Source: Sphingomonas natans (lineage in GTDB: Bacteria; Pseudomonadota; Alphaproteobacteria; Sphingomonadales; Sphingomonadaceae). From it: a stretch of 64,000 bases of DNA. Shown here piece after piece: positions 4,829 through 29,069 of this stretch. The DNA is taken from NCBI RefSeq assembly GCF_030546695.1, contig NZ_JAUOTP010000003.1:434001-498000 (forward strand), given 5' to 3'. Every line of letters begins with the position of its first letter. The stretch's first letter is position 1. The notes below the pieces were generated by a model that saw only the letters and a program-made list of their open reading frames with translations, was not told where the DNA came from and did no database searches. The translations under genes and the position numbers were made by a program.

Positions 4829-4853
4829 CTTCCTGCGTCATTGAAGGGCGGCG

Positions 4854-10111: not shown

Positions 10112-10227
10112 GGCACATTCTCCTCTTGCGGTCAGGCGGGTGCAACCGCCCGCGCACCGCGCGGGCGATATATGAAGGGTTTCCGGGCCTATTCGGGACG
10201 GCCGGCACGAACCGGGCGACCGATCGC

Positions 10228-11112
10228 TCAGCGATAATCGGGCTCCTCCCACCAGGGAAAGAAGTCCGGCATGTCGCGTGAGACGCGCTCTCCAAAGATC
10301 GGAGACCGCTTTTCCTGCCATGCGGCCACGCCCTCGATCGCGTCGGCGCTGCGACTGCGCGCCGCAATGCCCCGACTGTCGATCCGATGCGCGTCCATGG
10401 GGTGGCTCGCCGCCAGGCCGCGCCACATCTGGTGGCGGATGAGGGCGGCCGAAACCGGCGCCGAGCCGGCTGCGCAGTCTGCAGCCAGACGCCGCGCTGC
10501 GCCCAGCAATTCCTCCGACGGATAGACGGCGCGAACGAGCCCGCTGTCCAAAGCGTCGGCAGCCGTCACCGTGCGCGAGGCGTAGCACCATTCCAGCGCT
10601 GTCGAGATGCCGACCAGGCGCGGCAGGAAGAAGCCGGATGCGGCTTCCGGGACCATGCCGCGCGCCCCGAACACGAAGCGGAAGTCGGCGTCGGAGCTTG
10701 CGAGCCTGATGTCCATCGGCAGGGTGAGCGTAATCCCCAGCCCCACCGCCGGGCCGTTGATCGCGGCGATCACCGGCTTGAGTAGAGCATAGAGGCGCAG
10801 CGCCACGATCCCGCCGCCGTCGCGCATTTCCGGACGGCCATAATCGGGCTTGCCGCCTGGTCCGAGTGCTGCGGCAGAGGCTGGATCCACGAAACTGCCG
10901 GTGCCGCGCGACAGATCGGCACCGGCGCAGAAAGCGCGCCCTTCCCCGGTGATGATCAGCGCGCGGACATCGTCATCGGCATCGACGCGGTCGAGCACCG
11001 TCAGCAGGTCGCGGATCATCGCGCCATTCACCGCATTCAGGCGCTCCGGTCGCGCGAGAGTCACGATCCCGATCCCGTCGTCGACTGCATAACGGAGTGT
11101 CTCGAAGGTCAT
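10228..11112 (-). CDS. Enoyl-CoA hydratase/isomerase family protein
   Basis: A 294-residue crotonase. Seen: GIGIVTLARPERLNAVNGAM at the N-terminus, the oxyanion-hole segment GRAFCAGADLS, and the second active-site region GPAVGLGITLTLPMDIRLAS followed by ARGMVPEAASGFFLPRLVG, where the Glu sits in the usual acid/base place. It hydrates or isomerises an enoyl-CoA in beta-oxidation or ring-degradation steps. The start is the ATG at 11110-11112; the longer open frame upstream belongs to another frame of the neighbouring ligase. It lies between a CoA ligase (83-nt gap) and fbiC on the same strand. Confidence 0.88.
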   Translation of the reverse strand: MTFETLRYAVDDGIGIVTLARPERLNAVNGAMIRDLLTVLDRVDADDDVRALIITGEGRAFCAGADLSRGTGSFVDPASAAALGPGGKPDYGRPEMRDGGGIVALRLYALLKPVIAAINGPAVGLGITLTLPMDIRLASSDADFRFVFGARGMVPEAASGFFLPRLVGISTALEWCYASRTVTAADALDSGLVRAVYPSEELLGAARRLAADCAAGSAPVSAALIRHQMWRGLAASHPMDAHRIDSRGIAARSRSADAIEGVAAWQEKRSPIFGERVSRDMPDFFPWWEEPDYR

Positions 11113-11195
11113 ATGACGCTGTCCCGAAAGCTGGGTCGTTGGCGGCAGGTGCGTGGCCATGCCTCGACCAGGCCCGGCCCTTGACGGTGACGCGG

Positions 11196-12746: not shown

Positions 12747-13039
12747 GCCTTCCCTCCCCTGTCCGCTGTCGGCCCGTGCGCCGGGTTCAAAAACCTGGAG
12801 CCGGACCTGCCTCCGCACCTTCGGATTGCTGCTAGCGCGCGGAGGCGATAATACACAATGCTTCAGGCGCCATGCATTTCGTCGGGCAAAAACAGCGGCC
12901 GGGCGATGCCCGCGCGAAAGAGCGGATGTCTCCCGGGACCGGGGTTGGAGAGCATGCGGTTGGATCTTACGAACTGCGATCAGATTGCTCTGCCGGACCG
13001 CGCGGCGCGCGCTCGGCCAAAACTCGAAGGACAATGACA

Positions 13040-14011
13040 ATGGCGAATGACGGCCCGGAAAACGCGATGCAGGTTCCTGCCCGAACGATCCCGGCGCCCG
13101 CCTATCTGAGCGATGTGGCACGCGCCTATCTGATGCCGCAGCCGCCCTCGGCCCCCTACCCCGCGATCGACGACGTGGCAGGCTGGAGCGCTTATGTCAC
13201 CGCCGTCGACCAGGCGATCCTGCCGATGCTGAGCGCGATCATGGCGCAGGCCACCGGCGAGGTCGAGGAGCGGGTCGCAGACGGCGCGCGGATCTTCGAC
13301 ATCGTTCCGCCGGGGCGCGAGGAGGGCGATCGCAGCATCGTGCTGGACCTGCATGGCGGCGGCCTCATCATGTGTGGAGGCGAATTGTGCCGCCTCATGG
13401 GCGTCGGCTCGGCCGCGCGCCTGCAACGACGGGTGTGGGCGGTCGACTATCGGATGCCGCCGGCCCACCCCTATCCTGCGGCACTGGACGATTCTATGGC
13501 GGCCTATCGCGCCTTGCTGGAGGAGCGCTCGCCGGGGGAGATCATCGTCAGCGGCGGTTCGGCAGGCGGCAATCTGGCTGCCGCCTTGCTGCTGCGCGCG
13601 CGCGACGAGGGGCTGCCCATGCCGGCGGCCCTGATCCTGGCCACTCCGGAGGCCGATCTCACCGAATCCGGCGACTCGTTCCACACGAATGACGGCGTCG
13701 ATCCGGGCCTGCGCAGCCTCATGCCAGTCAACCTGCTCTACGCGGCGGGCCATGATCTGACGCACCCGTATCTGTCTCCGCTGTTCGGCGACGTGTCGGG
13801 CTTCCCGCCGACGCTCCTGACGAGCGGGACGCGCGACCTGTATCTGTCGAACACGGTCCGCATGCATCGCAAGCTGCGCGCCGCCGGCGTCGAGGCCGAA
13901 TTGCATGTGACCGAAGCCGGCCCGCACACCGGCTTTCCCGGCAGCCCGGAAGGCGCGGAGATCGACGCAGAAGTGCACCGTTTCCTGAAGGACATCCTGT
14001 CCCGGCGCTGA
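13040..14011 (+). CDS. Alpha/beta hydrolase of the hormone-sensitive lipase family
   Basis: A 323-residue esterase/lipase. Seen: the oxyanion-hole HGGG motif, the nucleophile elbow SGGSAGGN (GxSxG type; the common GDSAGG has Gly instead of Asp), the TSGTRDLYLSN segment with the catalytic Asp, and TEAGPHTGF with the His. It should hydrolyse a carboxylic ester. GAAGGA lies 8 nt before the ATG at 13040; an ATG two codons earlier is too close to the ribosome binding site. It is divergent from the CoA ligase. Confidence 0.85.
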   Translation: MANDGPENAMQVPARTIPAPAYLSDVARAYLMPQPPSAPYPAIDDVAGWSAYVTAVDQAILPMLSAIMAQATGEVEERVADGARIFDIVPPGREEGDRSIVLDLHGGGLIMCGGELCRLMGVGSAARLQRRVWAVDYRMPPAHPYPAALDDSMAAYRALLEERSPGEIIVSGGSAGGNLAAALLLRARDEGLPMPAALILATPEADLTESGDSFHTNDGVDPGLRSLMPVNLLYAAGHDLTHPYLSPLFGDVSGFPPTLLTSGTRDLYLSNTVRMHRKLRAAGVEAELHVTEAGPHTGFPGSPEGAEIDAEVHRFLKDILSRR

Positions 14012-14052
14012 CGCGCCGGGAATCCGGTCGCCTCACGAGGAGATGCGACCGG
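14001..14052 (+). terminator. Two tandem perfect hairpins at the end of the hydrolase gene
   Basis: The first stem is CCCGGCGC (14001-14008) with GCGCCGGG (14013-14020) around a 4-nt loop that contains the TGA stop. The second is CCGGTCGC (14024-14031) with GCGACCGG (14045-14052). Neither is followed by a T-run, so intrinsic termination is uncertain; they may block readthrough or protect the 3' end between two convergent genes. Confidence 0.45.
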
Positions 14053-14119
14053 AGCGGCGCGGGCGGCGATGATAAGCCACATCCCCGTCGCGGCCGCGTG
14101 CGGCAGGATCCGGCGCGGC

Positions 14120-15572
14120 TTAGAGAATGACAGTCAGGGCCGTACCCAGGTTCAGGGCCGGCTTGAACGTGCCGATAAAGGACGGATTGCGAATATAGGT
14201 AATCGAGGGCGACAGATAGAGCCCGCGCGCCATGTGATAGGCATAGAGGAAGCCGACCGAAATCTGGCCCTTGTGGGTCGCGGCGCCGAGCAGCGAATAG
14301 GTCTTGCCAGCCGTGGAGCTGAAGACATTGTAGCCGACGGTGAAGGACATCTGATCCGTCGGCCGGCCCGGCAGCATGCCGATCGCATAGGTCCGCACCT
14401 CGTAGGTCTGGGCGTAGACGTTGACGCTCTTCGGCGCGATCAGAGCGCATGCCCCGACGAAGATGCCGCGATAGGGCTCGGCCTTGCTCGGCTGGACCAG
14501 CTGATAGTCGGCAAGCACATAGGCCATCCAGTTGCGTTTCGTGCCGCGGCCGTCGAGACGCGCATAGTCTGTCGTATAGTACAGGCCGCCTGCGCGCAGC
14601 CAGATCTGATGGCCGTCGGGCGAAGCCGGACGCAGGATGCCGACTTCCTCGATGACGAGCGGCTTGGCGCCGTGCCGGGTCAGCTTCAGGCCGACGCCAT
14701 TGTCTTCGGCCTCCGCGATGAGGCCGTCGGGACCGATGCTGCGCTGCAGGCCGGTCTTCGAATAGAGGCCGTCCTTGCCGTTGAGGGTAATGTTGATCAG
14801 GGGCGTCGGCGCCGTGCTGCCGCTGAGCCCGGTCTCGATGGGGATCGTCGCGGCAACTTCGTTGGCGAGGATCGGATTACCCCCGGCGAAGATGCCGATA
14901 TAGTTGAGCAGGTTCGTTCCGAAGCCAACGGTCACCTGAAGCGTGTTGTCGAACAGGGTCGATGAAATGTCGACGCGGTCGAAGAAGACCTTGGACGGTC
15001 CGAGCTGACGCCAAGGTGACACCGGACACCTGGAAGCCGACATTGAGCTGGGTCACGTCTTCGTCCGTACCGGCGAACTTCCAGGACATGCGGGCTTCGT
15101 TCGAGGTTCCGCCGGTCGGCTTCTGACCACTGAACACGTGCGGGTCCTTCGAGCTCTTGCCCTTGGCGACATCGTAGGAGAAGGTGTTCACCGATTGCGC
15201 GCGAAACCACAGATCATGATCGTACAGCCAGGATCGCATGCCGCCGCGATCCTGCAGGATCGTATCGTAGCTGCCGGGCAGGTCGGTCGTCTGACCCTGC
15301 GATTTCAGGGCATCGAATTTGGCGAACTTCATCGCCTCCTGCATCATGGCGGCGCCTGCCGGATCGGGACCCGTCGGCGGCTCGGCGGACGGCGTCGAGG
15401 GGGCGGCAGCCGTCGAGGGACTGTCGGCGGCCGGCGGAGACTGCGGCGAGCCACCTTCCTGCGCGGCGGTGGGACGTTGTGCCATCGCGGCGGTCCCGGC
15501 CGTGCAGCATAGGATCATGAGCGGGGCGCAAAGGCGCGTGCGGATCTCCAGGCGGTGTGGCGGCATGGTCAT
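14120..15572 (-). pseudogene. OprB-like outer-membrane porin gene with a frameshift
   Basis: Read from 15572, the first part has a signal peptide (residues about 1-30, ending AAMA), a Pro/Ala-rich stretch and the porin N-terminus with SVNTFSYDVAKG and VFSGQKPTGGTSNEARMSW. This frame leaves the family after GFQVSGVT near 15013. The family match continues one nucleotide later in the next frame as WRQLGPSKVFFDRVDIS and runs to the stop at 14120 with many amphipathic beta strands. The total is one base too long for a single frame of about 483 codons, so one extra A (plus strand) at 15013/15014 explains it. It could be real inactivation or a sequencing error. If intact it would be a substrate-uptake porin. 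Confidence 0.7.
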
Positions 15573-15780
15573 CCTGGGCTGGTGCGAGATCGCCTACGAA
15601 ATGCACACCCGCCCTTTGCCGGCCAAGCCCACAACATCGCCTGGGCGGTAACCAGCGGCGGAAATCGGCCAAATCCGATGGACTGCCGCGTGGGACGGAT
15701 GGTTCGTTGCCGCCGGCGCACGCGACGCCTTGGGCCTCCTGTCGCAGGCCTGCCTTGTGGGTCCACTTCGGCCGAAAAAG

Positions 15781-16407
15781 CTAGCGGCCGATGCCGCGCA
15801 GAATGAAGAGGAACGTCGCCAGCGCCTCGTCCCGCGTCGCGCCGGTCTCCGGCGCATTCGCCATTGTCAGGGCTGCGTCATGCAGGGCCGCCTGGATCAT
15901 CGTTGCGAGCGGCAGCGTGGCACGCGGTTCGACCAGGTCGGCATCCATCAGCAGTTGAAGCGCGTCCGCCGTCCGGTTGGCGACATGATCGGCCTGCACT
16001 TCGCGCCAGCGCACCCAGCCCAGGATGGCGGGTCCGTCGATGAGCAGGATGCGGCGATAGTCGGCGTGGGCGACGATCAACAGCAGATAGGTGCGGAAGG
16101 CTTCGGTGACCTGCGCCCACAGATTGCCCGACAGGCCCGCGGCAGCCGCGCTCGAGCGCTCGGCCAGTTCCTCGGCGAGGAGGCGCGAGACGGCAAGGAA
16201 CAGCGCCTCCTTGTCGTCGAAATGATGATAGAGCGCGCCGCGCGTGAGGCCGGCGCGCGCCGCAATCTCCGTGGTTGCGGTCGCGTGATAGCCAGCCTCG
16301 GCAAAGAGAGCGCGCGCAACGGCCAGGATCGTATCGCGCGTCGCGGTGGCCCGCTTCTGCTGATCCTGCGGACTGCCGCCGCGCTTCGTATGGGGGAGCG
16401 CCGCCAC
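15781..16407 (-). CDS. TetR/AcrR family transcriptional regulator
   Basis: A 208-residue TetR protein. The HTH lies in residues about 20-66: ARALFAEAGYHATATTEIAA followed by RAGLTRGALYHHFDDKEALF. The C-terminal domain has a WVRWREVQADHV segment seen in many TetR proteins of this type. The best start is the GTG at 16405-16407; the frame stays open far upstream inside the neighbouring gene. It lies 20 nt downstream of the DRSWG-protein gene, so it is probably the last gene of that kinase/DRSWG operon and may control it. Confidence 0.85.
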   Translation of the reverse strand: MAALPHTKRGGSPQDQQKRATATRDTILAVARALFAEAGYHATATTEIAARAGLTRGALYHHFDDKEALFLAVSRLLAEELAERSSAAAAGLSGNLWAQVTEAFRTYLLLIVAHADYRRILLIDGPAILGWVRWREVQADHVANRTADALQLLMDADLVEPRATLPLATMIQAALHDAALTMANAPETGATRDEALATFLFILRGIGR

Positions 16408-16427
16408 GGATGTGCGCCCCCGCCCGC

Positions 16428-17597
16428 TCAGACGATGCGGACCCCGGGATAATCGCCCAGAATGATGCTTTCCATATCGCCAAACCCTTCGTTCTCGCCT
16501 TCCCGGATCCGTACAGGCCGATCCCGGATTTGCCACCGGTAGGTTTCGGCGAGTTTGGCGGGTGCGTTGACGTCGTCGATGCATTCGCCGTCGAGGAAAT
16601 CCTCGCCCTTGTAGCTGCCGTGCACCTGCCCCTTCCACGCGCCATACATGCCCGGCAGCAGGCGGAACCCCATTTCCGGGTTGATCACCTCGATATCGAA
16701 AACGCGCTCGACCACCTGCTTGCCCGGGCCCGCGAGGATTGCGGTGACCCGACCGCGCATCGCGCCGCGGTCCTGGTCGCGATAGTCCATCTCGGGATGC
16801 AGATGGAGGATCGGAATCTGGCGGCCGTCGCTCTCGTTGATATGACCGGTGAAGAAGGTCGGCGCACCCAGCCCGCCATAGTCGCGGAAGTAATAGGCCA
16901 GATCGTAGCTGGTCCCATCCGGGCGATCGATCTTCGAGACCAGCCAGTTGAAATGGAACGCGCTGCCGGTCTTGTCGCTGCTGGAGATGCCGACATTGCC
17001 GGGAACGAGGTCGGTCGGATCCAGGCCGACATGCTCGCGAACGCCCCAGCTGCGGTCGCGAAAGCCGTACCAATCGTCCGGGTTAACCTCGATCCGCTCG
17101 CCGTCGATCTCGATCCAGCCGGACACGGTGCCGGGCTGATGAAAGCGGATAAGGTCGGACGCGGTCCGGCCGCCATGGACGACGATGTCGCGATTTTCGA
17201 AGAAGGCGGGCATTGTCATGTGGAAGAGCAGGTCGAAGCGCAGCGGCTGCGCGTCATTCTCGGCGAGGGTGATGCGCAGGGTCTTGTAAGGTTCGATCAC
17301 CTCGCAGGCGATCGGTCCGACGCTCATATCGTCGAAGCGCGGCGCGAGCACGCGGCTGGCGCGCACGGTCCGCTGCTGCGTGCCGCGCTGGACGCCGGCG
17401 AAGCCGTCCATGACGTTGCGGTTGGGATATTTGCCGAGCCCGAGCCCGACCTGGAGCGTCGCATCCTTGCGGATCAGCGTGAACCAGGCCTTCTCGGTCC
17501 ACGAGCGATCGGCCGTGCCGACGGCGGCATGGGTGTTGACGATCTGATGATTGAACAGCTCGTCGGCGTCGGTCAGGGGCGCAATCGAGGGTATCAT
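16428..17597 (-). CDS. Unknown 'DRSWG' protein, copy A
   Basis: A 389-residue protein whose function I cannot assign. It is a clear paralogue of the 366-residue protein at 22439-23539: both share a YPNxNxMD block (residues 57-64 here), an RASR block, VGPI..E(V/I)(L/I)EP, a GTVSGW-type turn and a DRSWG block (FRDRSWGVR, residues 179-187). The D-x-x-W-G motif recalls the lipocalin-like AttH/CrtC hydroxyneurosporene-synthase fold, and uncharacterised DUF7064/7065-type annotations come to mind, but neither assignment is secure. No signal peptide or membrane segment is visible, so it is probably cytoplasmic. It starts 17 nt after an APH-type kinase gene and precedes a TetR gene. Confidence 0.75.
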   Translation of the reverse strand: MIPSIAPLTDADELFNHQIVNTHAAVGTADRSWTEKAWFTLIRKDATLQVGLGLGKYPNRNVMDGFAGVQRGTQQRTVRASRVLAPRFDDMSVGPIACEVIEPYKTLRITLAENDAQPLRFDLLFHMTMPAFFENRDIVVHGGRTASDLIRFHQPGTVSGWIEIDGERIEVNPDDWYGFRDRSWGVREHVGLDPTDLVPGNVGISSSDKTGSAFHFNWLVSKIDRPDGTSYDLAYYFRDYGGLGAPTFFTGHINESDGRQIPILHLHPEMDYRDQDRGAMRGRVTAILAGPGKQVVERVFDIEVINPEMGFRLLPGMYGAWKGQVHGSYKGEDFLDGECIDDVNAPAKLAETYRWQIRDRPVRIREGENEGFGDMESIILGDYPGVRIV

Positions 17598-17614
17598 GTC
17601 CGGTTTCTCCGTGT

Positions 17615-18595
17615 TCAGAAGCCGGCGTCATCGATCATGCTTTGCATGACGCCGATATAATATTCGAGACTGCGGGCGAAGATCGTCAGCTTGGGATCCG
17701 AACTTCGGCCGCTCGCGAACATGTTGGCACCCTCGGCGATAATCGCCGCGAGCTTTCCCATCTGCGCGATTTCGTGCCAGACCAGTCCTTCGGCCGACCG
17801 GCCGGAGATTTCTTCCCAAAGCGCGATCACCTCATCACGCACGAGCATTCCCGACAATTTGTAGGCACGGGTCGCGGCGTGATGTTTGCTTTCGAGCGCG
17901 TAGAGCATGTACCCCAGATTGGCGAGCGGCTCGCCGTTCAGCGCCATCTCCCAGTCCAGCACCGCGCCGACCTGGCCATCCACCCACAGGATGTTGGCCA
18001 ATTTGCTGTCGCCATGGATGAGGCCCGGCGGGCCGCTGCGCGGCGCCGGTACGCTCAGCAGCCGGTCGAACAGGCCGGCCAGTCGCGGGCTTTGCGCCTT
18101 CAGCGCGAAGGCGCGCCAGGTTCGCGCATCCTCTTCGGGCGCTACCGGCGCGCCCAAGATGTCGAGCGGCGCCAGGCGCGAGAGCCCGGCATAAGCGGCG
18201 ACCCACTGGCGGCAGATATCGGCCCGCAGGGCGTCACTGCCCTCTGCAAACCAGGCCTGCATCTCAAGGTCGTCGATCGCTTCGCCGGGCAGGCGCTCCA
18301 TCACGAAGAACGGGACGCCCAGAATCTCCGGCGTGTCGCAGATGGCGACGATCTTTGGCACGCGCGGTGCGTCCGGTCGCCGCCCGAGCTCTTCATAGAT
18401 GCGCGCCTGGGCGATCACGTCGTGACCGTCGAGCATCGCCCCGGCAGAGGGCGGCAGGCGCAGGATGAGGTCGAGCCCTTCGATCCGGTAGGTCTCGTTG
18501 GAGAATCCGGTTGTGAGCGAGACGATGCGCGTGATGCGGTCGCCATCTGGCAGGTAATCGCGCAACGCACGCGCCATCACCTCGACATCAGCCAC
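17615..18595 (-). CDS. APH-type phosphotransferase, acyl-CoA kinase-like, copy A
   Basis: A 326-residue aminoglycoside-phosphotransferase-fold kinase. Seen: the N-lobe LTTGFSNETYRIEGLDLILR, the linker PFFVMERLPGEA, the catalytic loop HGDSKLAN (H194, D196, N201) and the metal-binding D214 in LDWE. This subgroup (phosphotransferase family, ACAD10/11 N-domain and LvaA) includes kinases that phosphorylate 4-hydroxyacyl-CoAs. There is no resistance-gene context here, and catabolic neighbours make an acyl-CoA or other intermediate the likelier substrate. It is upstream of, and close to, DRSWG copy A. Confidence 0.83.
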   Translation of the reverse strand: MADVEVMARALRDYLPDGDRITRIVSLTTGFSNETYRIEGLDLILRLPPSAGAMLDGHDVIAQARIYEELGRRPDAPRVPKIVAICDTPEILGVPFFVMERLPGEAIDDLEMQAWFAEGSDALRADICRQWVAAYAGLSRLAPLDILGAPVAPEEDARTWRAFALKAQSPRLAGLFDRLLSVPAPRSGPPGLIHGDSKLANILWVDGQVGAVLDWEMALNGEPLANLGYMLYALESKHHAATRAYKLSGMLVRDEVIALWEEISGRSAEGLVWHEIAQMGKLAAIIAEGANMFASGRSSDPKLTIFARSLEYYIGVMQSMIDDAGF

Positions 18596-18732
18596 GTCTG
18601 CCTCTCCCCGAACTTTTTTTCCGAAGCGACATACAGCCTGTATCTCGCTTTCCTGTCAAACCGGCCGGGGCGCTGGAAACGGAAAAACGGGCGGGTCGAG
18701 GCCATCCATCACGGGATCCGCGCCCGGGCCGC

Positions 18733-20286
18733 CTAGACGGCTTCCTGCGCGGTCCGCTCGGCGATCATGTCCCGGATTAGGCGGCGGGCCACCTTGTTGC
18801 TGGGAAGCATCGGGACTTCGTGGGGCGCGATCTGGATGTAGGTCTGTGGCGTCTTGTATCTCGACAAACGGCCGCGCAAATGACTGTCCAAATCGTTGAA
18901 ATCCAACACAGTCCCATCGCGCGACACGATTGCTGCGGCGACGCGTTCGCCGCGCCTTGCGTCGGGCAGTCCCACGACATAGGCCGCCTGGACGCCGTCG
19001 ATCTGCATCAATTCTTGCTCGACTTCGGCCGGAGAGACGTTGGATCCGGACGTCTTGATCATGTCGCCGCTGCGGCCGACAAAGTGGATGCGGGGACCGT
19101 CGAGGAGCCCAAGATCGCCGGTGCGATAATAGCCGTCGGCTGTGAAATAGTCCGCCCGCTCGAACTTGTGGAGGCCCGGCGTCAGCGCATAGCCGCGCAC
19201 CTGGATCTCGCCGACCTCGCCGTCGCCGACGGGCCGGTCGTCCGTGTCGGCCACGCGGACCTCGTAGCGCTCGGCGATATGATCGAGCGGCGCGCACAGC
19301 GGAAAGCCGTCCGCGCGCAACACGTCGCCATAGGCGTAAGGCCCGAACGTCTCGCTCATGCCCAGCGCCCAATAGGGCGTGGCCTGGGCCATCATGGCGA
19401 GGTCGTCGGCGGCCAGGACGCTGCCCATCGCGTGGCGGCTGCTCGTCGACGTGCCTTCCGTGCAGACCGTGCACGCGCCCGAGATGAGGCTCGGCAGGAG
19501 GACGATGCCCAGCCCGCCGACCCAGAACATGGGCAGGATGGCGGCCGCTTCCTGGCCGCGCACACGCTTGGTCATCCTCGCGATATAGTCGGCGCGAAAC
19601 AGAACCGGGCCGTGGAGATGCTTCACCCCCTTGGGCGCGGCCATCGACCCTGACGTGTAGATCTCCAGAAGCTGGTCGGTGGCATGAACGGCGTCCTCGA
19701 CGGCGCGCAACATGGCGTCGCTCACGCCGCCGGCCGCGTCGGTCAGCCAGGACCGCGGGTGGATGGACGCGGGCAGATCGGCGCCGTCGCTGACGATCCA
19801 GCGCAGATATGGCGCATCCGGAATTTGCAGATTGGCTGAGGTGGCGTTGGCCAGAGCGGGCAGCGCGTCGCACAGACGATCGACATAATCATGTCCCAGA
19901 AGCGAGCGCTGGACGATCAGACCATGGACGTCCGACTGTCGCAACACGCGCACGAGCTCGTCGGCCTTGACCAGAGTGCTCAGCGGGATGGCGATCGCGC
20001 CGATGCGCGCGATGGCGGCGAGCAGGACCGCGAAGGTCGGGCTATTGCCATAGATGAAGCCGATCCGGCATCCCTTGCCCACGCCGCGTCCCAGCAGGGC
20101 CCGGGCGAGTTCGGCGGACGCGCGCTCCAGCCCGGAAAAGCTGATGGCATCGTCCGGGATCGTCTCGGCGTGGAGAACGACCGCCGGTTCTTCGCCATAA
20201 GCGGCGGCAGCGGCGTGCAACAGCTTCGGAAAGGTATCGAGCCTTGCCGCGCCGAGCGCCGCCTGCGGACTCTCGTCTTCAACCAT
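18733..20286 (-). CDS. AMP-dependent acyl-CoA ligase
   Basis: A 517-residue adenylate-forming enzyme. The P-loop region is IYTSGSMAAPKGVKH, where the usual TSGST-x-x-PKG has Met in place of the second Thr. Other motifs are normal: MSETFGPY, GYYRTGDLGLL, GRSGDMIKTSGSNVSP and a C-terminal LPSNKVARRLIRDM with the catalytic Lys. It should activate a carboxylic acid to its CoA thioester. It lies between the two kinase/DRSWG modules: 137 nt before kinase A and 128 nt after the DUF1330 gene. Confidence 0.85.
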   Translation of the reverse strand: MVEDESPQAALGAARLDTFPKLLHAAAAAYGEEPAVVLHAETIPDDAISFSGLERASAELARALLGRGVGKGCRIGFIYGNSPTFAVLLAAIARIGAIAIPLSTLVKADELVRVLRQSDVHGLIVQRSLLGHDYVDRLCDALPALANATSANLQIPDAPYLRWIVSDGADLPASIHPRSWLTDAAGGVSDAMLRAVEDAVHATDQLLEIYTSGSMAAPKGVKHLHGPVLFRADYIARMTKRVRGQEAAAILPMFWVGGLGIVLLPSLISGACTVCTEGTSTSSRHAMGSVLAADDLAMMAQATPYWALGMSETFGPYAYGDVLRADGFPLCAPLDHIAERYEVRVADTDDRPVGDGEVGEIQVRGYALTPGLHKFERADYFTADGYYRTGDLGLLDGPRIHFVGRSGDMIKTSGSNVSPAEVEQELMQIDGVQAAYVVGLPDARRGERVAAAIVSRDGTVLDFNDLDSHLRGRLSRYKTPQTYIQIAPHEVPMLPSNKVARRLIRDMIAERTAQEAV

Positions 20287-20414
20287 CCGCGCCCCCTCCC
20301 CGTCTCGTTGCCGGCCGTTGGTTTCGCAACCGGCGCGACGGTCGGCTGCGCCACGACACGCCGGACCGGCGCCTGCTTTCGACTTCGTTTCGCGGACCGG
20401 CTTGATGTTCGACC

Positions 20415-20702
20415 CTACAGGCCCTCGGTCAGGGTCACCTGATAGCTGGCGCCTTTGAACCGGTGGGCACGAGCCTCCTGATAGGCCGGGCTCTGATACC
20501 AGCCGAGTGCCGCCTCCTTGTCCGGAAAGGCCAGCACGACCATGCCTTCATGATCCGACCCTTCGAGGATTTCTTGGGCGCCATAAGCGGCGAGCGGCGT
20601 GACGGGATGACCCGCGAACGTCGCGCCAACCTTGCTGGAATAGACATCCATCTCGGACTGGTCCGTCGTCGCTAGCCGGGTGAACACGAGATAGGTCGTC
20701 AT
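20415..20702 (-). CDS. DUF1330 family protein
   Basis: A 95-residue protein starting MTTYLVFTRLATTDQSEMDV, with a YGAQEILEGSDHEGMVVLAF core and ending in a segment like WYQSPAYQEARAHR. This is the DUF1330 pattern, a dimeric alpha-beta barrel of unknown biochemical role often found beside catabolic enzymes. It lies upstream of the CoA ligase and downstream of the LLM remnant. Confidence 0.8.
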   Translation of the reverse strand: MTTYLVFTRLATTDQSEMDVYSSKVGATFAGHPVTPLAAYGAQEILEGSDHEGMVVLAFPDKEAALGWYQSPAYQEARAHRFKGASYQVTLTEGL

Positions 20703-20848
20703 GATTTTCCTCTTCCGCGGACATCCGCACCGAGCGAGAGTCTGTCGCCTTCGTCTTTAGCCCACCGGCCACAGCTTCGAAGACGGATTGACCGTTCTGC
20801 GGCAGCCGGCGCCCCACTTACCGCCCGGGCGATAGCGACACGGTCGCG

Positions 20849-20968
20849 TCAGGCCGGCAGGGCCGCCGCGAGCTCCCGCCAGGCGGGCAGGAGCACGGCA
20901 ACGTCCGGTTCCGGCGTCGGGCCCACCACCTGGAGACAGGCATGGTCGGCGCCCGCCGCCAGATGGTG
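20849..20968 (-). pseudogene. C-terminal remnant of a luciferase-like F420-dependent oxidoreductase
   Basis: Reading the minus strand, about 40 codons run LAAGADHACLQVVGPTPEPD and then, after four residues, PAWRELAAALPA before a TGA at 20849-20851. This matches the extreme C-terminus of TIGR03620-type luciferase-like oxidoreductases, where an AGADHVxxQV strand is followed by a final W-R-x-L-A helix. The match stops at about 20968. The codons before it look unrelated and run directly into the next gene's end at 20995, so the rest of the gene is missing. It is a likely relic of a deletion or rearrangement. Confidence 0.55.
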
Positions 20969-20994
20969 GGATTGAAAGCAGGGATCGGATCGTT

Positions 20995-21429
20995 TCACAT
21001 GCGGGGTGCGCGTCGCTCCTCGACCGTGCGCAACAGCCCCCAGATCCGCGCGTTCAGGTCCTGCGCCGCCGCGCGCCGATCGACCTCGATCTCGGCCTGC
21101 AACGCGATCAGCACCGTGCGCAGGCGGCCGTTCGCGCCGTCCAGTTCGCTGATCCGCAGACCAGGGTCGACCGATGCGGCCGCCTCGGCAAGGCGGGATG
21201 ACAGATCGCCGTCGACGAGGCTGACTGCATCGGCGAAGAGCTGGCGCATTTCCTGATTTTCCCAGACGCGCACTGCCGCTGCATCATCCACGGCGTTGGC
21301 GGCCACGCTCACCAGCAAGGTCGCCAACCGCGACATTTCCGCCGCGAAGCCCTCCGGGACTTCGGGCCTGATACGGTCGCGCAAGGTAGCGGCGACACCA
21401 TGCAGCAGCGTTTCGAGCGTGAGGTTCAT
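20995..21429 (-). CDS. Small all-helical protein partnered with the kinase, LvaB-like candidate
   Basis: A 144-residue protein, predicted almost entirely helical (LLHGVAATLRDRIRPEV, then several Ala/Leu/Arg-rich helices), with no signal peptide or membrane segment. Its start overlaps the stop of the kinase gene by 4 nt, so the two are translationally coupled. Small helical proteins next to APH-type acyl-CoA kinases include LvaB of Pseudomonas putida, which LvaA needs for activity. I infer a similar partner role from context and general character, not from a firm sequence match. Confidence 0.6.
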   Translation of the reverse strand: MNLTLETLLHGVAATLRDRIRPEVPEGFAAEMSRLATLLVSVAANAVDDAAAVRVWENQEMRQLFADAVSLVDGDLSSRLAEAAASVDPGLRISELDGANGRLRTVLIALQAEIEVDRRAAAQDLNARIWGLLRTVEERRAPRM

Positions 21430-22442
21430 GCAGCGATACCGCGCTCGGTCATGAGCGTCAGGATCAGATTGCGATGAAAATGCCCCGCGCGAATGCCGGA
21501 CATCGCGACGACCATTTCACGTGCCTCGCCGTGCGTGAAACTGGCTTCGGCGGTCGTCCAGATGGCGCAAGCCTTGACCGCAGAAAAGAGCCGCCACCAG
21601 TCGAGTGCAAGCCGGTCCACGACCAGACCGCTCGATGCCTCCCATTCGCGCAAACCCTCTTCCAACGCGAGATGGCGGGTCATCGGCCAGAAGGGATCGA
21701 TCGCCCAGGCGACATCCTCGAGCGGGTCGCCGACGTGGCACATTTCCCAGTCGAGGATGGCGCTGATGCGGCCGTCCGGCGTGAACAGAAAATTGCCGGC
21801 GCGATAGTCGCCATGAACGATGGCCGGCTTGACGGGGCCAGGCGGCGGATGGCGGCGTAGCCAGCGGATGGCGGCATGGACGATCGGTTCGGGAACGTCT
21901 TCGCCCTTCTCGAGGATTGCGGTCCACCAATCCAGCTCCCGCGACCACAGGTCGTCGTCCGCCTTGCCGTTCCGTATCTTGGCCAGGCCCAAAACGCGGT
22001 GGTCGAGCGCGGCAAGGGTGCCCAGGTGGCGCCAGAAGGCCCGCGCGACGGCGTCGCTCTGACCGTCATAGGGGTCTGCGGACGCATAGAAATGCCCTGG
22101 CTTGCCCGGCATCAGATCCATGATGAAAAAGGGCCGATCGAGCCAGCACGGCTCCGTTTCGAAATGATAAGCGCCCGGCACCGGGACGCCGTGACCCGCC
22201 AGCGCGCGATAGACCGTGAATTCGATGTCACGCTCTGCCACGACAAGACCGGCTGGCGGTGCGCGACGCAGGATAAGGTTGCGCTCGACCGCGCGCCCCT
22301 CTTCCTCCCACGTCGCCCGGAACCGATAGGTCTCCTGGCTGCTCCCGCCCTGGATGCGGGCAAGGTTCGTGACGGACAGGTTGCGCGCGCCGGGTTGCTG
22401 ATGGGCGAGATAGTCGGCGAGCCGCCGTTCCAGTTCGCTCAT
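21426..22442 (-). CDS. APH-type phosphotransferase, acyl-CoA kinase-like, copy B
   Basis: A 338-residue kinase of the same family as the one at 17615-18595. Seen: IQGGSSQETYRFRA as the nucleotide-binding turn, ERNLILRRAP with the ATP-binding region, PFFIMDLMPG, the catalytic HGDYRAGN (H210, D212, N217) and metal-binding D231 in ILDWEMCHVGDPLEDVAW. The last segment is highly typical of the ACAD11/LvaA-like subgroup. It is coupled by 4-nt overlaps to DRSWG copy B upstream and to the small helical protein downstream. Confidence 0.87.
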   Translation of the reverse strand: MSELERRLADYLAHQQPGARNLSVTNLARIQGGSSQETYRFRATWEEEGRAVERNLILRRAPPAGLVVAERDIEFTVYRALAGHGVPVPGAYHFETEPCWLDRPFFIMDLMPGKPGHFYASADPYDGQSDAVARAFWRHLGTLAALDHRVLGLAKIRNGKADDDLWSRELDWWTAILEKGEDVPEPIVHAAIRWLRRHPPPGPVKPAIVHGDYRAGNFLFTPDGRISAILDWEMCHVGDPLEDVAWAIDPFWPMTRHLALEEGLREWEASSGLVVDRLALDWWRLFSAVKACAIWTTAEASFTHGEAREMVVAMSGIRAGHFHRNLILTLMTERGIAA

Positions 22443-23539
22443 GGCGCGTCGAACATGCCGGTGAAGCCGCGCGCGGGATTGGGTCCCATGCTCAGCGATT
22501 CGAAGGTTCCGATACCGCCGACTGCGCGTCCGTCGGGTGTCTCCATTCGCAGTCGCGCGAAGGCCTCGGTGTGCAGATAGGGCGGCGCGTGGTCGGTGAC
22601 CTCGTCGGCCCGGATCTCGTCATAGCCAATCGCGAACGGCCCCTTGTTGAAGCCATGTCCCCACTCGGGATGCATGTAGCCGACGCCCGAAAGATAGATC
22701 CTCTTTTCGGCCTGAATCTCAACACGATAGGCACGGCCGGCATCGTCGAAGGCGGTGATGACGCCCTCTCTCGGCCAGCGCGTTCCGGGATGTTCGGTCG
22801 TTGCGATCGTCGGCGCATGGAGATGTTCGACCCGCCCGTCATCATGCACCATGACCAGATCGCGATGCCAGATCGCCCCCTGCTCGTCCTCGTTGAGATA
22901 GAAATGGACGATGCGGTCCTCGAGATGGGCCGGCACCCAATACCAGTGGAATTGCCGGGTCGGCGCTGGCACCATTTCCTGCGGATCGCGCAGACCGACG
23001 GCGCGCATACCCCAGGACCGATCGCGCGAGCCGATGACGCCGGCCTCCTCGGCGCTGATGTCCTGTCCGCCCGCGTGCAGCCAGCCCGAATAGCGGCCGA
23101 GCTGGGTCAACCGGCTATAGTCCATCGTCACCCGCGGCCCGTTGCGTCGGGTCGAGCGCACTTCCTCGACGGGCGCATGCCGCCCTTCGAACACCAGATC
23201 GGCCGCGATCTGGTGCTCATTGTCGGCGACGACCAGGCGAAGCCGCCTGAGCGGCTCGAGGATCTCGATCCTGATCGGACCGACCTCGATGTCCATCCGC
23301 TCCATGTTCAGATGCCGCGAGGCGCGCAGGTTATATTGGACGTCGCCGATCCGGACCGCGAAAGCTGCGTCCATGATGTTGAGGTTGGGATAGACGCCGA
23401 GCGCGAAGAGAAAGAACAGGGACCCGTCGGCGGAATAGCCGTTGAAGAAATAGCGGTCGTAGAAATTGCGCTCCGTTCCGGCGAACGCGATCGGGTCCGG
23501 TGTCTGATGAATGGGATAATCGTCGCCCTTGCTCAGCAT
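22439..23539 (-). CDS. Unknown 'DRSWG' protein, copy B
   Basis: A 366-residue protein of unknown function and a paralogue of the one at 16428-17597. Shared blocks are YPNLNIMD (residues 50-57), RASR, VGPIRIEILEP, a YSGW turn and SRDRSWGMR (171-179). C-terminal parts also correspond loosely (HLEDRIVHFYLNEDE region; MHPEWGHG). The many aromatic residues and the duplicated beta-rich look suggest a two-domain beta barrel, possibly lipocalin-like, with a hydrophobic ligand. No secretion signal. It lies 54 nt after the MDR reductase gene and overlaps kinase B by 4 nt, so it belongs to that operon. Confidence 0.75.
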   Translation of the reverse strand: MLSKGDDYPIHQTPDPIAFAGTERNFYDRYFFNGYSADGSLFFLFALGVYPNLNIMDAAFAVRIGDVQYNLRASRHLNMERMDIEVGPIRIEILEPLRRLRLVVADNEHQIAADLVFEGRHAPVEEVRSTRRNGPRVTMDYSRLTQLGRYSGWLHAGGQDISAEEAGVIGSRDRSWGMRAVGLRDPQEMVPAPTRQFHWYWVPAHLEDRIVHFYLNEDEQGAIWHRDLVMVHDDGRVEHLHAPTIATTEHPGTRWPREGVITAFDDAGRAYRVEIQAEKRIYLSGVGYMHPEWGHGFNKGPFAIGYDEIRADEVTDHAPPYLHTEAFARLRMETPDGRAVGGIGTFESLSMGPNPARGFTGMFDAP

Positions 23540-23593
23540 TGCCAGGCATCCTCCAGATTGATGCGGCCGGTGCGTCCGGCCGGCTGTTTGCTG

Positions 23594-24703
23594 TTAGGGT
23601 CGGATCACAAGCCGCTGGTGAAGGTCTCCGCCGGCGATCCGCCGATGAGCCGACGCCGCGTCCTCGAGCGCCACGACCTCGGGTGCGGGCAAGGCGAGTT
23701 GGCCCGTGTCGATGAGCGCGAGGAGATGCTCGGCGTCCGCGCGATACTCGGCAGGAAGCGCGGCGCGCCGCAGGTTGATGTCGTAGAACAAGGTGCGCCG
23801 CTGGGTTCCATCGGCTGCGCCCTCTTCGTTCCAGCCTGTGTTGAACTGCTCGAGCGACCGCATCGCTTCGGTCGACGGTGCCCCCGATTCCAGAAAGTCC
23901 TGCATGCCATAGCCGGCAAGAACGCCGCCCTTTGCCAGGACCGCCCAGCTCGTCTCCCAGCTGCTTCCGCCGACGGCATCGAAGGCCGCGTCCACGCCTT
24001 TGCCATGGCTGGCGGACAGGATCGCCGCGCGCAGATCGTCGCGCCGATAGTCGAGCGCGAGCGCGCCGAGCCTTTCCACGAGGCCCAGCTTCGCGCCGGA
24101 ACTGGTCCCGATCACGGTCAGACCCAGAATGCGGCCGAGCAAGACCAGCAGACGGCCCACCGCCCCACTCGCTCCCACGACCAATATGGTCGATCCTGGC
24201 GCCAGCGAGACGCAGCGGGTCAGCAATTGCCACGCGGTCACCCCCATCAGGGGTATCTCGACGGCCGCGAGCATGTCGACGCCCACGGGGACTCGCACGA
24301 GATCGGCCGCCGGTCGGACCAGATATTCGCTATGGCCGCCATGCACGGGCATGTCGCAGACGCGGTCGCCAGTCTCCCATTGGGTGACCCCGGCGCCCAG
24401 CGCGTCGACCACTCCGGCAATGTCATAGCCGGGCGTGAACGGGAGACCGCCCTTGTAGAGCGCATATCGCCCCCGCCGGACGATCGTGTCGGTATAGCCC
24501 GTACCCGCCGCCTCGACGCGGACGCGCACCTCCCCCTCGCCCGGCTCGGGCAGAGGGCTCGCACGCTCGACCGCGAGCACGTCGGCGTCTCCGAAGCTGC
24601 GCGCGACGACCTTGCGATAGTCGGCCGAAGGACCCGGTGCCGGCGCCCCGCCCGGCGCTGCGTCATCCTTGGGCGGGCGGGCGTCGGTGTCAGGCAGTGC
24701 CAT
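23594..24703 (-). CDS. MDR family NADPH:quinone/enone oxidoreductase
   Basis: A 369-residue medium-chain dehydrogenase/reductase. Seen: the N-terminal GroES-like domain with PFTPGYDIAGVVDALGAGV, then the Rossmann segment STILVVGASGAVGRLLVLLG and a downstream VDAAFDAVGG. It lacks the zinc-binding residues of alcohol dehydrogenases and looks like the zinc-free quinone oxidoreductase/enoyl reductase group. The N-terminus has a Pro/Ala-rich extension of about 30 residues. The ATG at 24701-24703 overlaps the upstream amidohydrolase by 14 nt. Confidence 0.83.
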   Translation of the reverse strand: MALPDTDARPPKDDAAPGGAPAPGPSADYRKVVARSFGDADVLAVERASPLPEPGEGEVRVRVEAAGTGYTDTIVRRGRYALYKGGLPFTPGYDIAGVVDALGAGVTQWETGDRVCDMPVHGGHSEYLVRPAADLVRVPVGVDMLAAVEIPLMGVTAWQLLTRCVSLAPGSTILVVGASGAVGRLLVLLGRILGLTVIGTSSGAKLGLVERLGALALDYRRDDLRAAILSASHGKGVDAAFDAVGGSSWETSWAVLAKGGVLAGYGMQDFLESGAPSTEAMRSLEQFNTGWNEEGAADGTQRRTLFYDINLRRAALPAEYRADAEHLLALIDTGQLALPAPEVVALEDAASAHRRIAGGDLHQRLVIRP

Positions 24704-26417
24704 GGCGCAGCAGCTTTCCCGGAGTTGCCTGGGTGCATTCGCCGTCGATGAATGTGACGACGCCGTTGACGATGATGAAATGATAGCCGGTCGCCTTCTG
24801 GACGAGGCGCCACTCGCCTGCGGGATAGTCCCACAACCGCTCCTGCGGCAGCGACCCGATGGCGTCAGCATCATAGACGATGACGTCGGCGGCCATGCCT
24901 TCGGCGAGATATCCGCGGCCCTTCAGCCCTGCAGCCCGTGCGGGCGAGGCGGACAAACGCCAGTGCGCCTCCTCGAGCGAGAGCAGGTCATGGTCGCGCG
25001 ACCACAAGCCCAGCAGGTCGGATGGGAAACGCCCGGTCGTGACGAACTTGGTATGCGCGCCGCCATCGCTGATGCCCGGCAGACCGGTCGGCACCTTGAT
25101 GATCTCCTGCATGTTTTCCGGCGGCGTGACGATCATTTCCGTCTCGAAGCCGCTCTGAAGGCCGCCCCAGACCGCAATGTCGAGCATGACGTCGAGCGGA
25201 TGCTTGCCTTCCCGGACGGCGATCTCCCCGATCGAGAAGCCTTCATACCGTTCCTGCAGCGCCAAGCCGTCCGGCACGTCGAGCGGGATCCAGGCGACCT
25301 TGATGCGGTCGACCACATAGCCCGAGGAGAACAGCCCGCCGCGCTCCTCATGGATCGCCTTGAGCGCGGTACGCCGCGCGGGATCCTTGAACTTCTCGAG
25401 CTTCTCGGCGACCGTCCCTGTGCAGATCTCCTTCCACGCAGGGATGGCGTCGGCCAGATTGTAATCCTCGAACGTGAACTGCGAGGCGAAATTGACCGTC
25501 TGGGCCTGCGCGTAGATCCGCACGCCGTCGACTTCGTTCAGCGTCTTGAGACGAGCGATGGCCTCGCGCGGCTGGATCTTGGCGCCCCCATGCTGGTTGA
25601 GCGCGCCTTCCGCCATCAGCGCGTTCCAGATGGCGGGCCGCCCGCTCTCCCGGGCGATCAGCTCGGCATTGTCGAGCTCGCCGGTCATCTGCGAAATGCC
25701 GCGGCCCGTGCTACCCATGGTCCTCGAAAAGGCGGTGAGGTCGCGCCGGCTGATAAGATCCGTCACCATCGGCGTGCCGTCATGATCGAGCTGGACGTTG
25801 CCCACATCGCCCATGATCTGGATGCTGAACCCGCAGCCGCCCGCGTCCATGCCTTCCAGCAACAGATCGCACATCTGCTGGAGCTCGTCCTCGGTCGCGT
25901 CCCGCTTCTTGGCTTCGTCGATGCCGATGACATAGCCGTAGATCGGCGCCAGCGGCACGAACGACATGACGTTCACGCCCTTGGGCGCCCGCTCCACGCT
26001 GTCGAGATATTCGCGATAGGTGACCCAGTCCCAGGGCATGCCCTGACGCATCGTCTCCAGCGGCACGGCCTCGTTCCGGACAAGGCTGAGCATGGCGCGC
26101 TCGCGATCCTCGGGCTTGCAGGGCGCAAAGCCGAATCCGCAATTGCCGATCACCACGCTGGTGACGCCGTGCCATCCGGACATCGTGCACCACGGATCCC
26201 AGAAAAGCTGGCTGTCATAATGGGTGTGAAGATCGATGACGCCCGGCGCGACGATCTTGCCGTGCGCGTCGATGACTTTTTCGCCAAGTTCTGCCGGAAT
26301 GGCGCCGCCCATCGTGACGATCAGGCCATCCTTGATGCCGATGTCACCGCGATATCGCGGTGTCTGGAGACCGTCGATCACAGTCCCGTTCTGAATGACG
26401 ATGTCGTACGTGGCCAC
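24690..26417 (-). CDS. Amidohydrolase, N-acyl-D-amino-acid deacylase family
   Basis: A 575-residue metal-dependent amidohydrolase. Seen: the N-terminal DIVIQNGTVIDGLQTPRYRG beta sandwich, the metal motif GVIDLHTHYDSQ, VVIGNCGFGFAP with the metal-bridging Cys typical of D-aminoacylases, and the late catalytic Asp in ISDGGAHTKF. Members hydrolyse N-acyl-D-amino acids or related amides. In this setting it may release an amino acid from a conjugated substrate, but that is inference. It is the first gene of a minus-strand run with MDR, DRSWG B, kinase B and the small protein. Confidence 0.85.
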   Translation of the reverse strand: MATYDIVIQNGTVIDGLQTPRYRGDIGIKDGLIVTMGGAIPAELGEKVIDAHGKIVAPGVIDLHTHYDSQLFWDPWCTMSGWHGVTSVVIGNCGFGFAPCKPEDRERAMLSLVRNEAVPLETMRQGMPWDWVTYREYLDSVERAPKGVNVMSFVPLAPIYGYVIGIDEAKKRDATEDELQQMCDLLLEGMDAGGCGFSIQIMGDVGNVQLDHDGTPMVTDLISRRDLTAFSRTMGSTGRGISQMTGELDNAELIARESGRPAIWNALMAEGALNQHGGAKIQPREAIARLKTLNEVDGVRIYAQAQTVNFASQFTFEDYNLADAIPAWKEICTGTVAEKLEKFKDPARRTALKAIHEERGGLFSSGYVVDRIKVAWIPLDVPDGLALQERYEGFSIGEIAVREGKHPLDVMLDIAVWGGLQSGFETEMIVTPPENMQEIIKVPTGLPGISDGGAHTKFVTTGRFPSDLLGLWSRDHDLLSLEEAHWRLSASPARAAGLKGRGYLAEGMAADVIVYDADAIGSLPQERLWDYPAGEWRLVQKATGYHFIIVNGVVTFIDGECTQATPGKLLRHGTA

Positions 26418-27870: not shown

Positions 27871-28620
27871 TCATTCGAGCAGCACGGCGCGCAGCGTCTC
27901 GCGGTCGTCGGCCGTCAGCGCGAGGGTCTCGGCGAGATAGGCATCGAGCGAACCGCTGCGCTCGGTCACCGCCTCGAACATCGCATCGAGATAGGCAGGA
28001 TCCGGCACGATCATCGGAGAAACGCTGGCCCGTCTGGCGTCCGACATGGGCGGTCGTCCCTTGACGGGCGGCGAGGCCAGCAGGTCGAACTCCGCTGTCA
28101 GGCCGTAATCCTTCACGATATCGGTTCGAGCGACACCGAGCGCGGCGAGGATCAACGCGGCGGCAACGCCCGTCCGGTCCTTGCCGGCCGCACAGTGGAA
28201 CAGGACCGGCCAGCGTCCGTCGATCACCGATCGAAACAGCCGGATGAAGGCATCGCTCTGCTCGTAGGGAAGCGCCCGGTACAGGGACAGCATCGCGCCG
28301 CGGCTGTCGTCCGCTGTCAAATCGGGGCTGCGCAGCAGCGGGCCGAGGTCGGCGCCCGAGGCATGATGATCGCGACACCAATAATCGGTGCAGCCCAGTG
28401 CCTCCCAAGGCGTCGGAAAGGCGGTCCGCTCGCCATTATGGCGGAAATCGATGATCGTCCGGATGCCGAGCGCGCGGACAACCTCGAGCAACTCGCCATC
28501 GAGCCCTGACAGCGTCGCCGCGCGATACAGCCGTCCGCGACGAACGACCGTCCCGTCCGGGAAAGCCTGAAAGCCGCCCAGGTCGCGCAGATTGACCGCG
28601 CGGGACAATCGGTCCCGCAT
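27871..28620 (-). CDS. Tyrosine-protein phosphatase, DSP/PTP-like
   Basis: A 249-residue phosphatase with the conserved N-terminal segment VNLRDLGGFQAFPDG and the active-site loop HCAAGKDRTG (C143 nucleophile, CxxGKDR signature). This bacterial family dephosphorylates tyrosine residues or phosphoinositides in host-associated species; in soil bacteria the role is unclear. The start is uncertain: the ATG at 28618-28620 is used here, but a TTG at 28641 overlapping the ferredoxin stop is also possible. It is coupled to the ferredoxin gene. Confidence 0.83.
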   Translation of the reverse strand: MRDRLSRAVNLRDLGGFQAFPDGTVVRRGRLYRAATLSGLDGELLEVVRALGIRTIIDFRHNGERTAFPTPWEALGCTDYWCRDHHASGADLGPLLRSPDLTADDSRGAMLSLYRALPYEQSDAFIRLFRSVIDGRWPVLFHCAAGKDRTGVAAALILAALGVARTDIVKDYGLTAEFDLLASPPVKGRPPMSDARRASVSPMIVPDPAYLDAMFEAVTERSGSLDAYLAETLALTADDRETLRAVLLE

Positions 28621-28637
28621 CAAGGCCGGCGTTTCGA

Positions 28638-28955
28638 TCAATCCTCCGGCGCGATCTGCACTTTGAGCCCATCGAGGGCCGCATTGATCTGGATCTGGCA
28701 CGACAGGCGCGACGTCGGCCCGCGATGTTCGGAGCTGTCGAGCAGGTCGTTCTCGTCCTCGCTCATCGGCGGCAGCATCGCGAAGCCTGCGGGATCGACG
28801 AGGACATGACAGGTCGCGCAGGAGCAGCACCCCCCGCACAAGGCGAGCAGTTCATCAAAGCCTGCATCGCGGATCGCCTCCATCACCGAGATACCCTCGC
28901 CGGCATCGAGCTCCGTCTCGACGCCCTCGCGGGTGACAACGATCAGTTTCGGCAT
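28638..28955 (-). CDS. [2Fe-2S] ferredoxin, adrenodoxin/putidaredoxin type
   Basis: A 105-residue vertebrate-type ferredoxin. Cluster ligands are C40-x5-C46-x2-C49 and C86 ([11 protein letters not shown] and RLSCQI). Two extra cysteines (C43 and C44) sit within the first loop, which is uncommon. It would pass electrons to a P450, and the P450 at 29479 in the same run is the likely partner. No ferredoxin reductase is in the window. The ATG at 28953-28955 has GGGAG 8 nt upstream and is preferred to an ATG five codons earlier. Confidence 0.87.
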
Positions 28956-29069
28956 CTGGCAAGCTCCCATGGTTCCCCGATAACGGGGCTCTTCGATACG
29001 GTTGCGACGTGAGGATTCACGACAGACTGGACGTGCGCCGGCCCGGACACAATTCGGTGGTGCGGCGGA

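What the first reader, a model, noticed from the sequence alone, without database searches (positions are those of the whole stretch)
15781..26417. Duplicated kinase + 'DRSWG' protein module: candidate undescribed acyl-CoA phosphorylation system
Two minus-strand modules pair an APH-type kinase (HGDxxxxN) with a protein of unknown function carrying YPNxNxMD and DRSWG blocks. Module B also has a translationally coupled small helical protein. Established: in levulinate catabolism (lva operon of Pseudomonas putida) LvaA, a kinase of this family, phosphorylates 4-hydroxyvaleryl-CoA with small partner LvaB, and mammalian ACAD10/11 carry related kinase domains for 4-hydroxyacyl-CoAs. Inference: these modules phosphorylate a hydroxylated acyl-CoA (perhaps terpenoid or steroid derived) to enable elimination, with the DRSWG protein as an unrecognised partner. 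The nearby CoA ligase and MDR reductase fit such a route.
Basis: partly seen in the sequence, partly recalled or inferred. Interest (0 to 1): 0.85.

Follow-up and report, generated by a model that had tools for sequence, protein, structure and literature searches.

The report
Kinase plus phosphate-removing enzyme pairs
Two gene modules each pair a kinase with a relative of a known enzyme that knocks phosphate off a steroid to leave a double bond, so they probably strip hydroxyl groups from steroid- or terpene-like compounds in two ATP-paid steps; one module also carries a small helical protein of no known family that was found with nearly every kinase of its type examined.

The parts
16428..17597 (-). 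Lyase A: Rv3169-family / 25-phosphosteroid-lyase-like protein, 389 aa (DRSWG protein of module A)
17615..18595 (-). Kinase A: APH-type phosphotransferase, 326 aa, HGDSKLAN and DWE motifs
   Evidence: PF01636 106.9 bits; PDB relatives 9o56, 9fsg, 3ats, 3dxp, ACAD11; motifs
20995..21429 (-). Small all-helical kinase-partner protein, 144 aa
   Evidence: AF2 pLDDT 94.1, five helices; 4-base overlap with kinase B; found in 41 of 44 loci with this kinase type next to the lyase (3 cut by contig ends) and 0 of 22 with the other; no Pfam match
21426..22442 (-). Kinase B: APH-type phosphotransferase, 338 aa, HGDYRAGN and DWE motifs
   Evidence: PF01636 117.8 bits; PDB relatives 3dxp, 3ats, 9o56, ACAD11, 9fsg
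22439..23539 (-). Lyase B: Rv3169-family / 25-phosphosteroid-lyase-like protein, 366 aa (DRSWG protein of module B)
   Evidence: NF053593 390 bits; PDB 25-PSL E 1e-52
15781..16407 (-). TetR-family regulator directly after lyase A (start chosen here)
   Evidence: PF00440 67.8 bits, PF21351 70.2 bits
18733..20286 (-). AMP-forming acyl-CoA ligase upstream of kinase A
   Evidence: PF00501 128.7 bits
20415..20702 (-). DUF1330 protein between the modules
   Evidence: PF07045 76.9 bits
23594..24703 (-). MDR-family reductase/dehydrogenase upstream of lyase B (start at 24703 chosen here)
   Evidence: PF08240, PF00107, PF13602
24690..26417 (-). Amidohydrolase (Amidohydro_3), first gene of the module B run; link to the reaction unclear
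   Evidence: PF07969 71.4 bits

Best explanation
Each module is a two-step ATP-dependent dehydratase. The APH-fold kinase transfers phosphate from ATP to a poorly reactive alcohol of a hydrophobic substrate, most likely a tertiary alcohol on a terpenoid or steroid skeleton or side chain. The DRSWG protein (AttH-like beta fold) then eliminates phosphate and leaves an alkene, which neighbouring reductase, CoA ligase and beta-oxidation enzymes can process. In module B the 144-residue helical protein is a dedicated subunit or activator of that kinase lineage, in the position LvaB has beside LvaA. Shown here: family membership of both lyases, fold match of lyase A, intact kinase motifs, conserved gene pairing, lineage-specific linkage of the small protein. 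Inferred: the reaction, the substrate class, the role of the small protein. Modules A and B probably act on different substrates (inferred from their divergence).
Against: No activity has been measured for A, B or near relatives. A is far from 25-PSL (28% identity in the structural alignment). A paper on the activity of 25-PSL was not found in the library; its identity rests on PDB names and titles. Lyases without a near kinase exist: 13 of 80 named loci show none and one has it 483 bases away on the other strand, 9 of the 66 with ample flank lack an adjacent one; L065 and L091 show none in 15 and 19 kb, L066 one about 4.8 kb away; plasmid loci L097 and L246 show none. The kinases resemble ACAD11 about as well as 9fsg, so an acyl-CoA substrate is open. 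No steroid-pathway marker was tested in this genome.
Confidence: 0.74

Rival explanations
1. Lva/ACAD-type route: the kinases phosphorylate a hydroxyacyl-CoA made by the nearby CoA ligases and the DRSWG protein performs the elimination that LvaC or the ACAD domain performs elsewhere. This differs from the best explanation mainly in the substrate (CoA ester).
For: Kinase B's top PDB relatives include 3dxp, named 'putative acyl-CoA dehydrogenase', and ACAD11. A CoA ligase directly precedes kinase A; CoA ligases adjoin pairs in Pseudonocardia and Variovorax records. Weak profile similarity of the small protein to DUF6285, which I recall as the LvaB family.
Against: The closest lyase with a named substrate acts on a steroid that is not a CoA ester (titles). 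Lva and ACAD10/11 elimination uses acyl-CoA dehydrogenase-type proteins (PMC11342911, passages). The window's own kinases fall outside the DUF6285-linked kinase clade.
Confidence: 0.2
2. The kinases are antibiotic or small-molecule inactivating phosphotransferases, and the neighbouring DRSWG genes are unrelated to their reaction.
For: APH fold; weak matches to macrolide and capreomycin phosphotransferase models. The homologue Rv3168 was called a putative aminoglycoside resistance enzyme in print (PMC3691515, passages).
Against: Those matches are far below cut-off (best 29 bits against 650). Lyase-kinase pairing recurs across phyla and gene orders.
Confidence: 0.04
3. The DRSWG proteins are hydratases or isomerases of the AttH-like fold that act before or beside the kinase and do not eliminate phosphate.
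Confidence: 0.07
4. The small protein is not a kinase subunit but a regulator or a hitch-hiking gene.
For: No biochemical test; no clear fold match.
Against: Clean split by kinase type and a 4-base overlap in 34 of 41; the parallel with LvaB, which pulls down with LvaA (PMC6692424, passages), and with DUF6285, fused to or directly beside a kinase in 25 of 25 loci.
Confidence: 0.15

Closest known systems
25-hydroxysteroid kinase and 25-phosphosteroid lyase of Sterolibacterium denitrificans (25-HSK/25-PSL)
   Same: Lyase family NF053593 and fold; APH-like kinase; two-step ATP-dependent dehydration is the natural reading.
   Different: Aerobic-type locus with P450 and CoA ligases (inferred from genes); kinase and lyase adjacent here, whereas the 2021 paper saw no lyase candidate near 25-HSK (PMC8449060 discussion); module B adds a small protein, whereas recombinant 25-HSK was active and monomeric on its own.
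LvaA/LvaB/LvaC of Pseudomonas putida and ACAD10/11
   Same: APH-like kinase that primes a hydroxyl for elimination; in Lva a small partner protein of the kinase.
   Different: Elimination there is by acyl-CoA dehydrogenase-type proteins on 4-phosphoacyl-CoA (PMC11342911, PMC12440821, passages); no such gene adjoins either module; the small protein is not a Pfam DUF6285 match.
Rv3168-Rv3169 of Mycobacterium tuberculosis
   Same: Adjacent kinase and family-naming lyase homologue in one operon beside a TetR gene (PMC5340868, passages); module A also has a TetR gene next to its lyase.
   Different: Function unknown there as far as the passages go; no small-protein gene is described in the passages read.
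AttH-like fold proteins: NE1406, kievitone hydratase, CghA/Fsa2/Phm7 pericyclases
   Different: 9-14% identity; no kinase partner known to me.

Membership tests
NF053593 Rv3169 family (contains 25-PSL) | Score over the curated cut-off of 150 bits | tested here: met
   A 309.9, B 390; 25-PSL fragment 369.9
25-phosphosteroid lyase | Same fold as solved 25-PSL | tested here: met
25-phosphosteroid lyase | Eliminates phosphate from a 25-phosphosteroid | not testable with these tools
   Needs an enzyme assay
APH (PF01636) phosphotransferases | Curated cut-off plus HGDxxxxN and DxE motifs | tested here: met
   106.9 and 117.8 bits against 23.2; motifs
25-hydroxysteroid kinase | Phosphorylates the tertiary C25 alcohol | not testable with these tools
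   Only distant similarity to 9fsg, which I take to be 25-HSK by inference: 47.4 bits (kinase A) and 45.1 bits (kinase B)
LvaB / DUF6285 (equation of the two is recalled) | Pfam PF19802 match | tested here: not met
   No match at E up to 10; no PF19802 match in the whole genome at E 0.01
LvaB / DUF6285 (equation of the two is recalled) | Gene directly 3' of, and coupled to, an APH kinase | tested here: met
   4-base overlap; DUF6285 itself fused to or directly beside a kinase in 25 of 25 loci
LvaB / DUF6285 (equation of the two is recalled) | Remote profile similarity | tested here: inconclusive
   hhalign probability 60.3%, E 8.5e-5, 80 columns
LvaB / DUF6285 (equation of the two is recalled) | Same fold | tested here: inconclusive
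Lva/ACAD10-11 4-hydroxyacyl-CoA system | LvaC-like acyl-CoA dehydrogenase next to the kinase | tested here: not met
   None among the genes of the two modules; the nearest found among the window genes scanned are at 45209-46471 and 46392-47366

The most novel reading that the evidence does not exclude
The Rv3169, DUF7064 and DUF7065 proteins form one large superfamily of phosphate-eliminating lyases. Most are paired with a dedicated kinase (APH type, or a PEP-utiliser type), and together they are a general, modular toolkit for ATP-dependent removal of alcohol groups in bacteria, including the long-unassigned Rv3168-Rv3169 pair. The small helical protein found here, its distant relatives and LvaB/DUF6285 are parallel classes of obligatory subunits of separate kinase lineages.
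Probability: 0.42. Interest if true: 0.78.

Novelty: new variant of a known kind. Interest (0 to 1): 0.62.

Why it matters
Dehydrating a tertiary alcohol by phosphorylation and phosphate elimination is known to me from few systems, chiefly anaerobic sterol degradation. If the pairs found here do the same, the reaction is far more widespread, though patchy: 42 of 119 sampled genomes of the window's family hold the lyase over cut-off, against 12 of 299 sampled across its phylum; one genome holds about 15 lyase-superfamily genes, 11 of them near kinases. It would give a testable function to a DUF superfamily and to many kinases now labelled as aminoglycoside phosphotransferases, and would define a new class of kinase subunit.

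Tried and rejected
Recent tandem duplication: rejected. Lyases 34% identical over 218 residues, kinases 25% over 327, different clades.

DRSWG protein as a new unknown fold or kinase subunit: rejected by the 25-PSL match and by two relatives of lyase A that stand beside PEP-utiliser genes with no APH match in 25 kb.

Conserved catabolic neighbours as a clue to the substrate: beyond lyase, kinase and small protein (and shadow ORFs over them) no ORF cluster reached more than 22 of the 80 named loci, so the substrate stays open. Literature searches. Two papers, PMC8449060 and PMC11061730, hold the 25-HSK or 25-PSL names. DUF7064 was in none of the 14 papers; DUF6285 and DUF7065 were in none of the 15 papers listed of 30.

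Caveats on counts. The start codon used for the 34 of 41 overlaps was the in-frame one nearest the expected place. In one search, 30 loci hold 26 distinct genes by my reading of coordinates: 20 have a kinase directly beside them or separated only by a small-protein gene, 1 (L238) has one about 0.8 kb away, 5 have none; the set includes the window's own lyase A (L225). The link of A and B to DUF7065 and DUF7064 by Pfam is under the cut-offs (22.1 against 27 and 21.3 against 24.7 bits). Negative control: 913 ORFs from the window outside the modules and from four unrelated loci gave no kinase and no small-protein hits.
Full report
What is there. On the minus strand lie two kinase-plus-DRSWG modules. 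Module B reads lyase 22439-23539, kinase 21426-22442, small protein 20995-21429, each overlapping the next by 4 bases. Module A reads kinase 17615-18595, lyase 16428-17597, then a TetR gene 15781-16407. A CoA ligase (18733-20286) precedes kinase A; an MDR reductase (start taken as 24703) and an amidohydrolase precede lyase B. The genome has 5 APH matches and 2 members of the lyase family.

What the kinases are. Both are APH-fold with intact HGDxxxxN and DxE motifs. PDB relatives are mixed: ACAD11, 3dxp, 9o56, 3ats (listed with 3att, which PMC3691515 gives as Rv3168), and 9fsg, which I take to be 25-HSK by inference from its neighbouring entry codes. Sequence alone does not decide between a free alcohol and a CoA ester.

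Pairing. The searches were made with the lyase; kinases were then sought in the flanks. A kinase was adjacent in 28 of 31 first loci, the window's two included; L012 had a kinase-like ORF 0.6 kb away, L017 and L024 none. In 80 named loci 66 had one, 64 directly downstream on the same strand and 2 upstream; counting only loci with 1.2 kb on both sides, 57 of 66. In longer stretches L065 and L091 showed none and L066 one about 4.8 kb off. Of 14 plasmid loci inspected, from 13 records (the two searches matched 26 records each), 10 had an APH kinase next to the lyase or separated only by a small-protein gene (L096, L098, L099, L245, L247-L252), 2 had PEP-utiliser genes (L094, L095) and 2 neither (L097, L246). 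Distant DUF7065 relatives show the same: 21 of 26 distinct genes, one of them at about 0.8 kb. In one single-contig genome 11 of 15 superfamily genes lie within 1.5 kb of an APH kinase; 20,000 random placements gave a mean of 0.39 and a maximum of 5. Rv3168-Rv3169 is one such operon in print (PMC5340868, passages).

Different kinases, same lyase. Lyase A sits in a six-row clade (support 100/100) with two Rhodococcus lyases whose upstream genes carry PEP-utiliser mobile domains and no APH match, a Mycobacterium branderi lyase without a kinase neighbour, and two sphingomonad lyases with APH kinases. A Desulfobacteraceae locus has a PPDK-type gene about 3.3 kb after its lyase (L155). This favours a lyase acting on the phosphorylated product over a structural subunit of one kinase. 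It is an argument from neighbourhood only.

The small protein. The clustering gave two kinase types among the 80 named loci. With type 0 (module B's) next to the lyase the small protein was found in 41 of 44, and the three misses end at the contig edge; with type 1 it was found in 0 of 22; its start lies 4 bases inside the kinase stop in 34 of 41. A 45th type 0 locus, L160, is the exception described below. In the kinase tree the small-protein kinases and those with distant small proteins group together (93/82, short of the strict support level); DUF6285-linked kinases form their own clade (100/100), and module A's kinase groups with the kinases beside its lyase's relatives (100/99). DUF6285, the family I recall for LvaB, is fused to a kinase in 13 and directly beside one in 12 of 25 loci. 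In L160 (Desulfobacteraceae) a distant lyase relative (NF053593 36.7 bits, under the cut-off; RDHSWG), a kinase of the DUF6285 clade and a DUF6285 protein follow each other in the order of module B. Profile comparison links the small protein to its distant relatives (probability 95.8%) and weakly to DUF6285 (60.3%). Its model is confident and all-helical with no clear solved relative. I read it as a kinase subunit, parallel to LvaB, which pulls down with LvaA (PMC6692424, passages).

Mechanism. In Sterolibacterium 25-HSK phosphorylates a tertiary C25 alcohol, and elimination of phosphate gives an alkene (PMC8449060 sections read; PMC11061730 passages). The same two steps are the simplest reading here. 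The fold relatives include kievitone hydratase, which I recall hydrates a prenyl double bond to a tertiary alcohol, so the fold already handles that chemistry in the other direction; this is a recalled fact, not tested. The P450 (29479-30720), ferredoxin (28638-28970), CoA ligases, thiolase and acyl-CoA dehydrogenases in the window suggest a catabolic region for a hydrophobic compound; which one is unknown.

Verdict. The system is a variant of a known kind, not undescribed, and the acyl-CoA claim is open. New here, as far as the searches went: the breadth of the pairing, the lineage-bound small protein, the possible change of kinase type beside lyase A's relatives, and the extension to DUF7065 proteins.

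Noticed in passing
window 3884-10591 (-): Coenzyme F420 gene set in a Sphingomonadaceae-like genome: CofC, CofD, CofE, NADPH-F420 reductase and a fused CofGH each exceed an NCBIfam cut-off, with a TIGR03619 F420-dependent oxidoreductase beside them. Unusual for the group as far as I recall.
   Followed up: partly
window 27871-28839 (-), L099:6088-6921, L090 near 2923: Tyrosine-phosphatase-family genes near lyase-kinase loci: PF13350 in the window and L099, a similar ORF in L090; possibly a repair phosphatase for dead-end phosphoesters. In Pseudomonas citronellolis a phosphatase gene likewise sits in the lva cluster (PMC6692424, passages).
   Followed up: partly
L251 (Variovorax sp. SRS16 plasmid 3) 1806-7557: CoA ligase, kinase, 180-aa protein, lyase, kinase, 156-aa protein in a row: perhaps two kinase-plus-small-protein sets around one lyase; only the 156-aa one matched the small-protein HMMs.
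   Followed up: partly
genome handle G088: About 15 lyase-superfamily genes and 24 APH matches in one 3.35 Mb genome, suggesting an expanded toolkit.
   Followed up: partly
L098 (Rhodococcus oxybenzonivorans pRB98) 5775-16328: Run of CoA ligase, P450, OB-fold protein, lyase, kinase, 177-aa protein, aldehyde dehydrogenase and acyl-CoA dehydrogenase genes; its lyase groups with 25-PSL in the tree. The 177-aa protein matched no Pfam family and none of my small-protein HMMs.
   Followed up: partly
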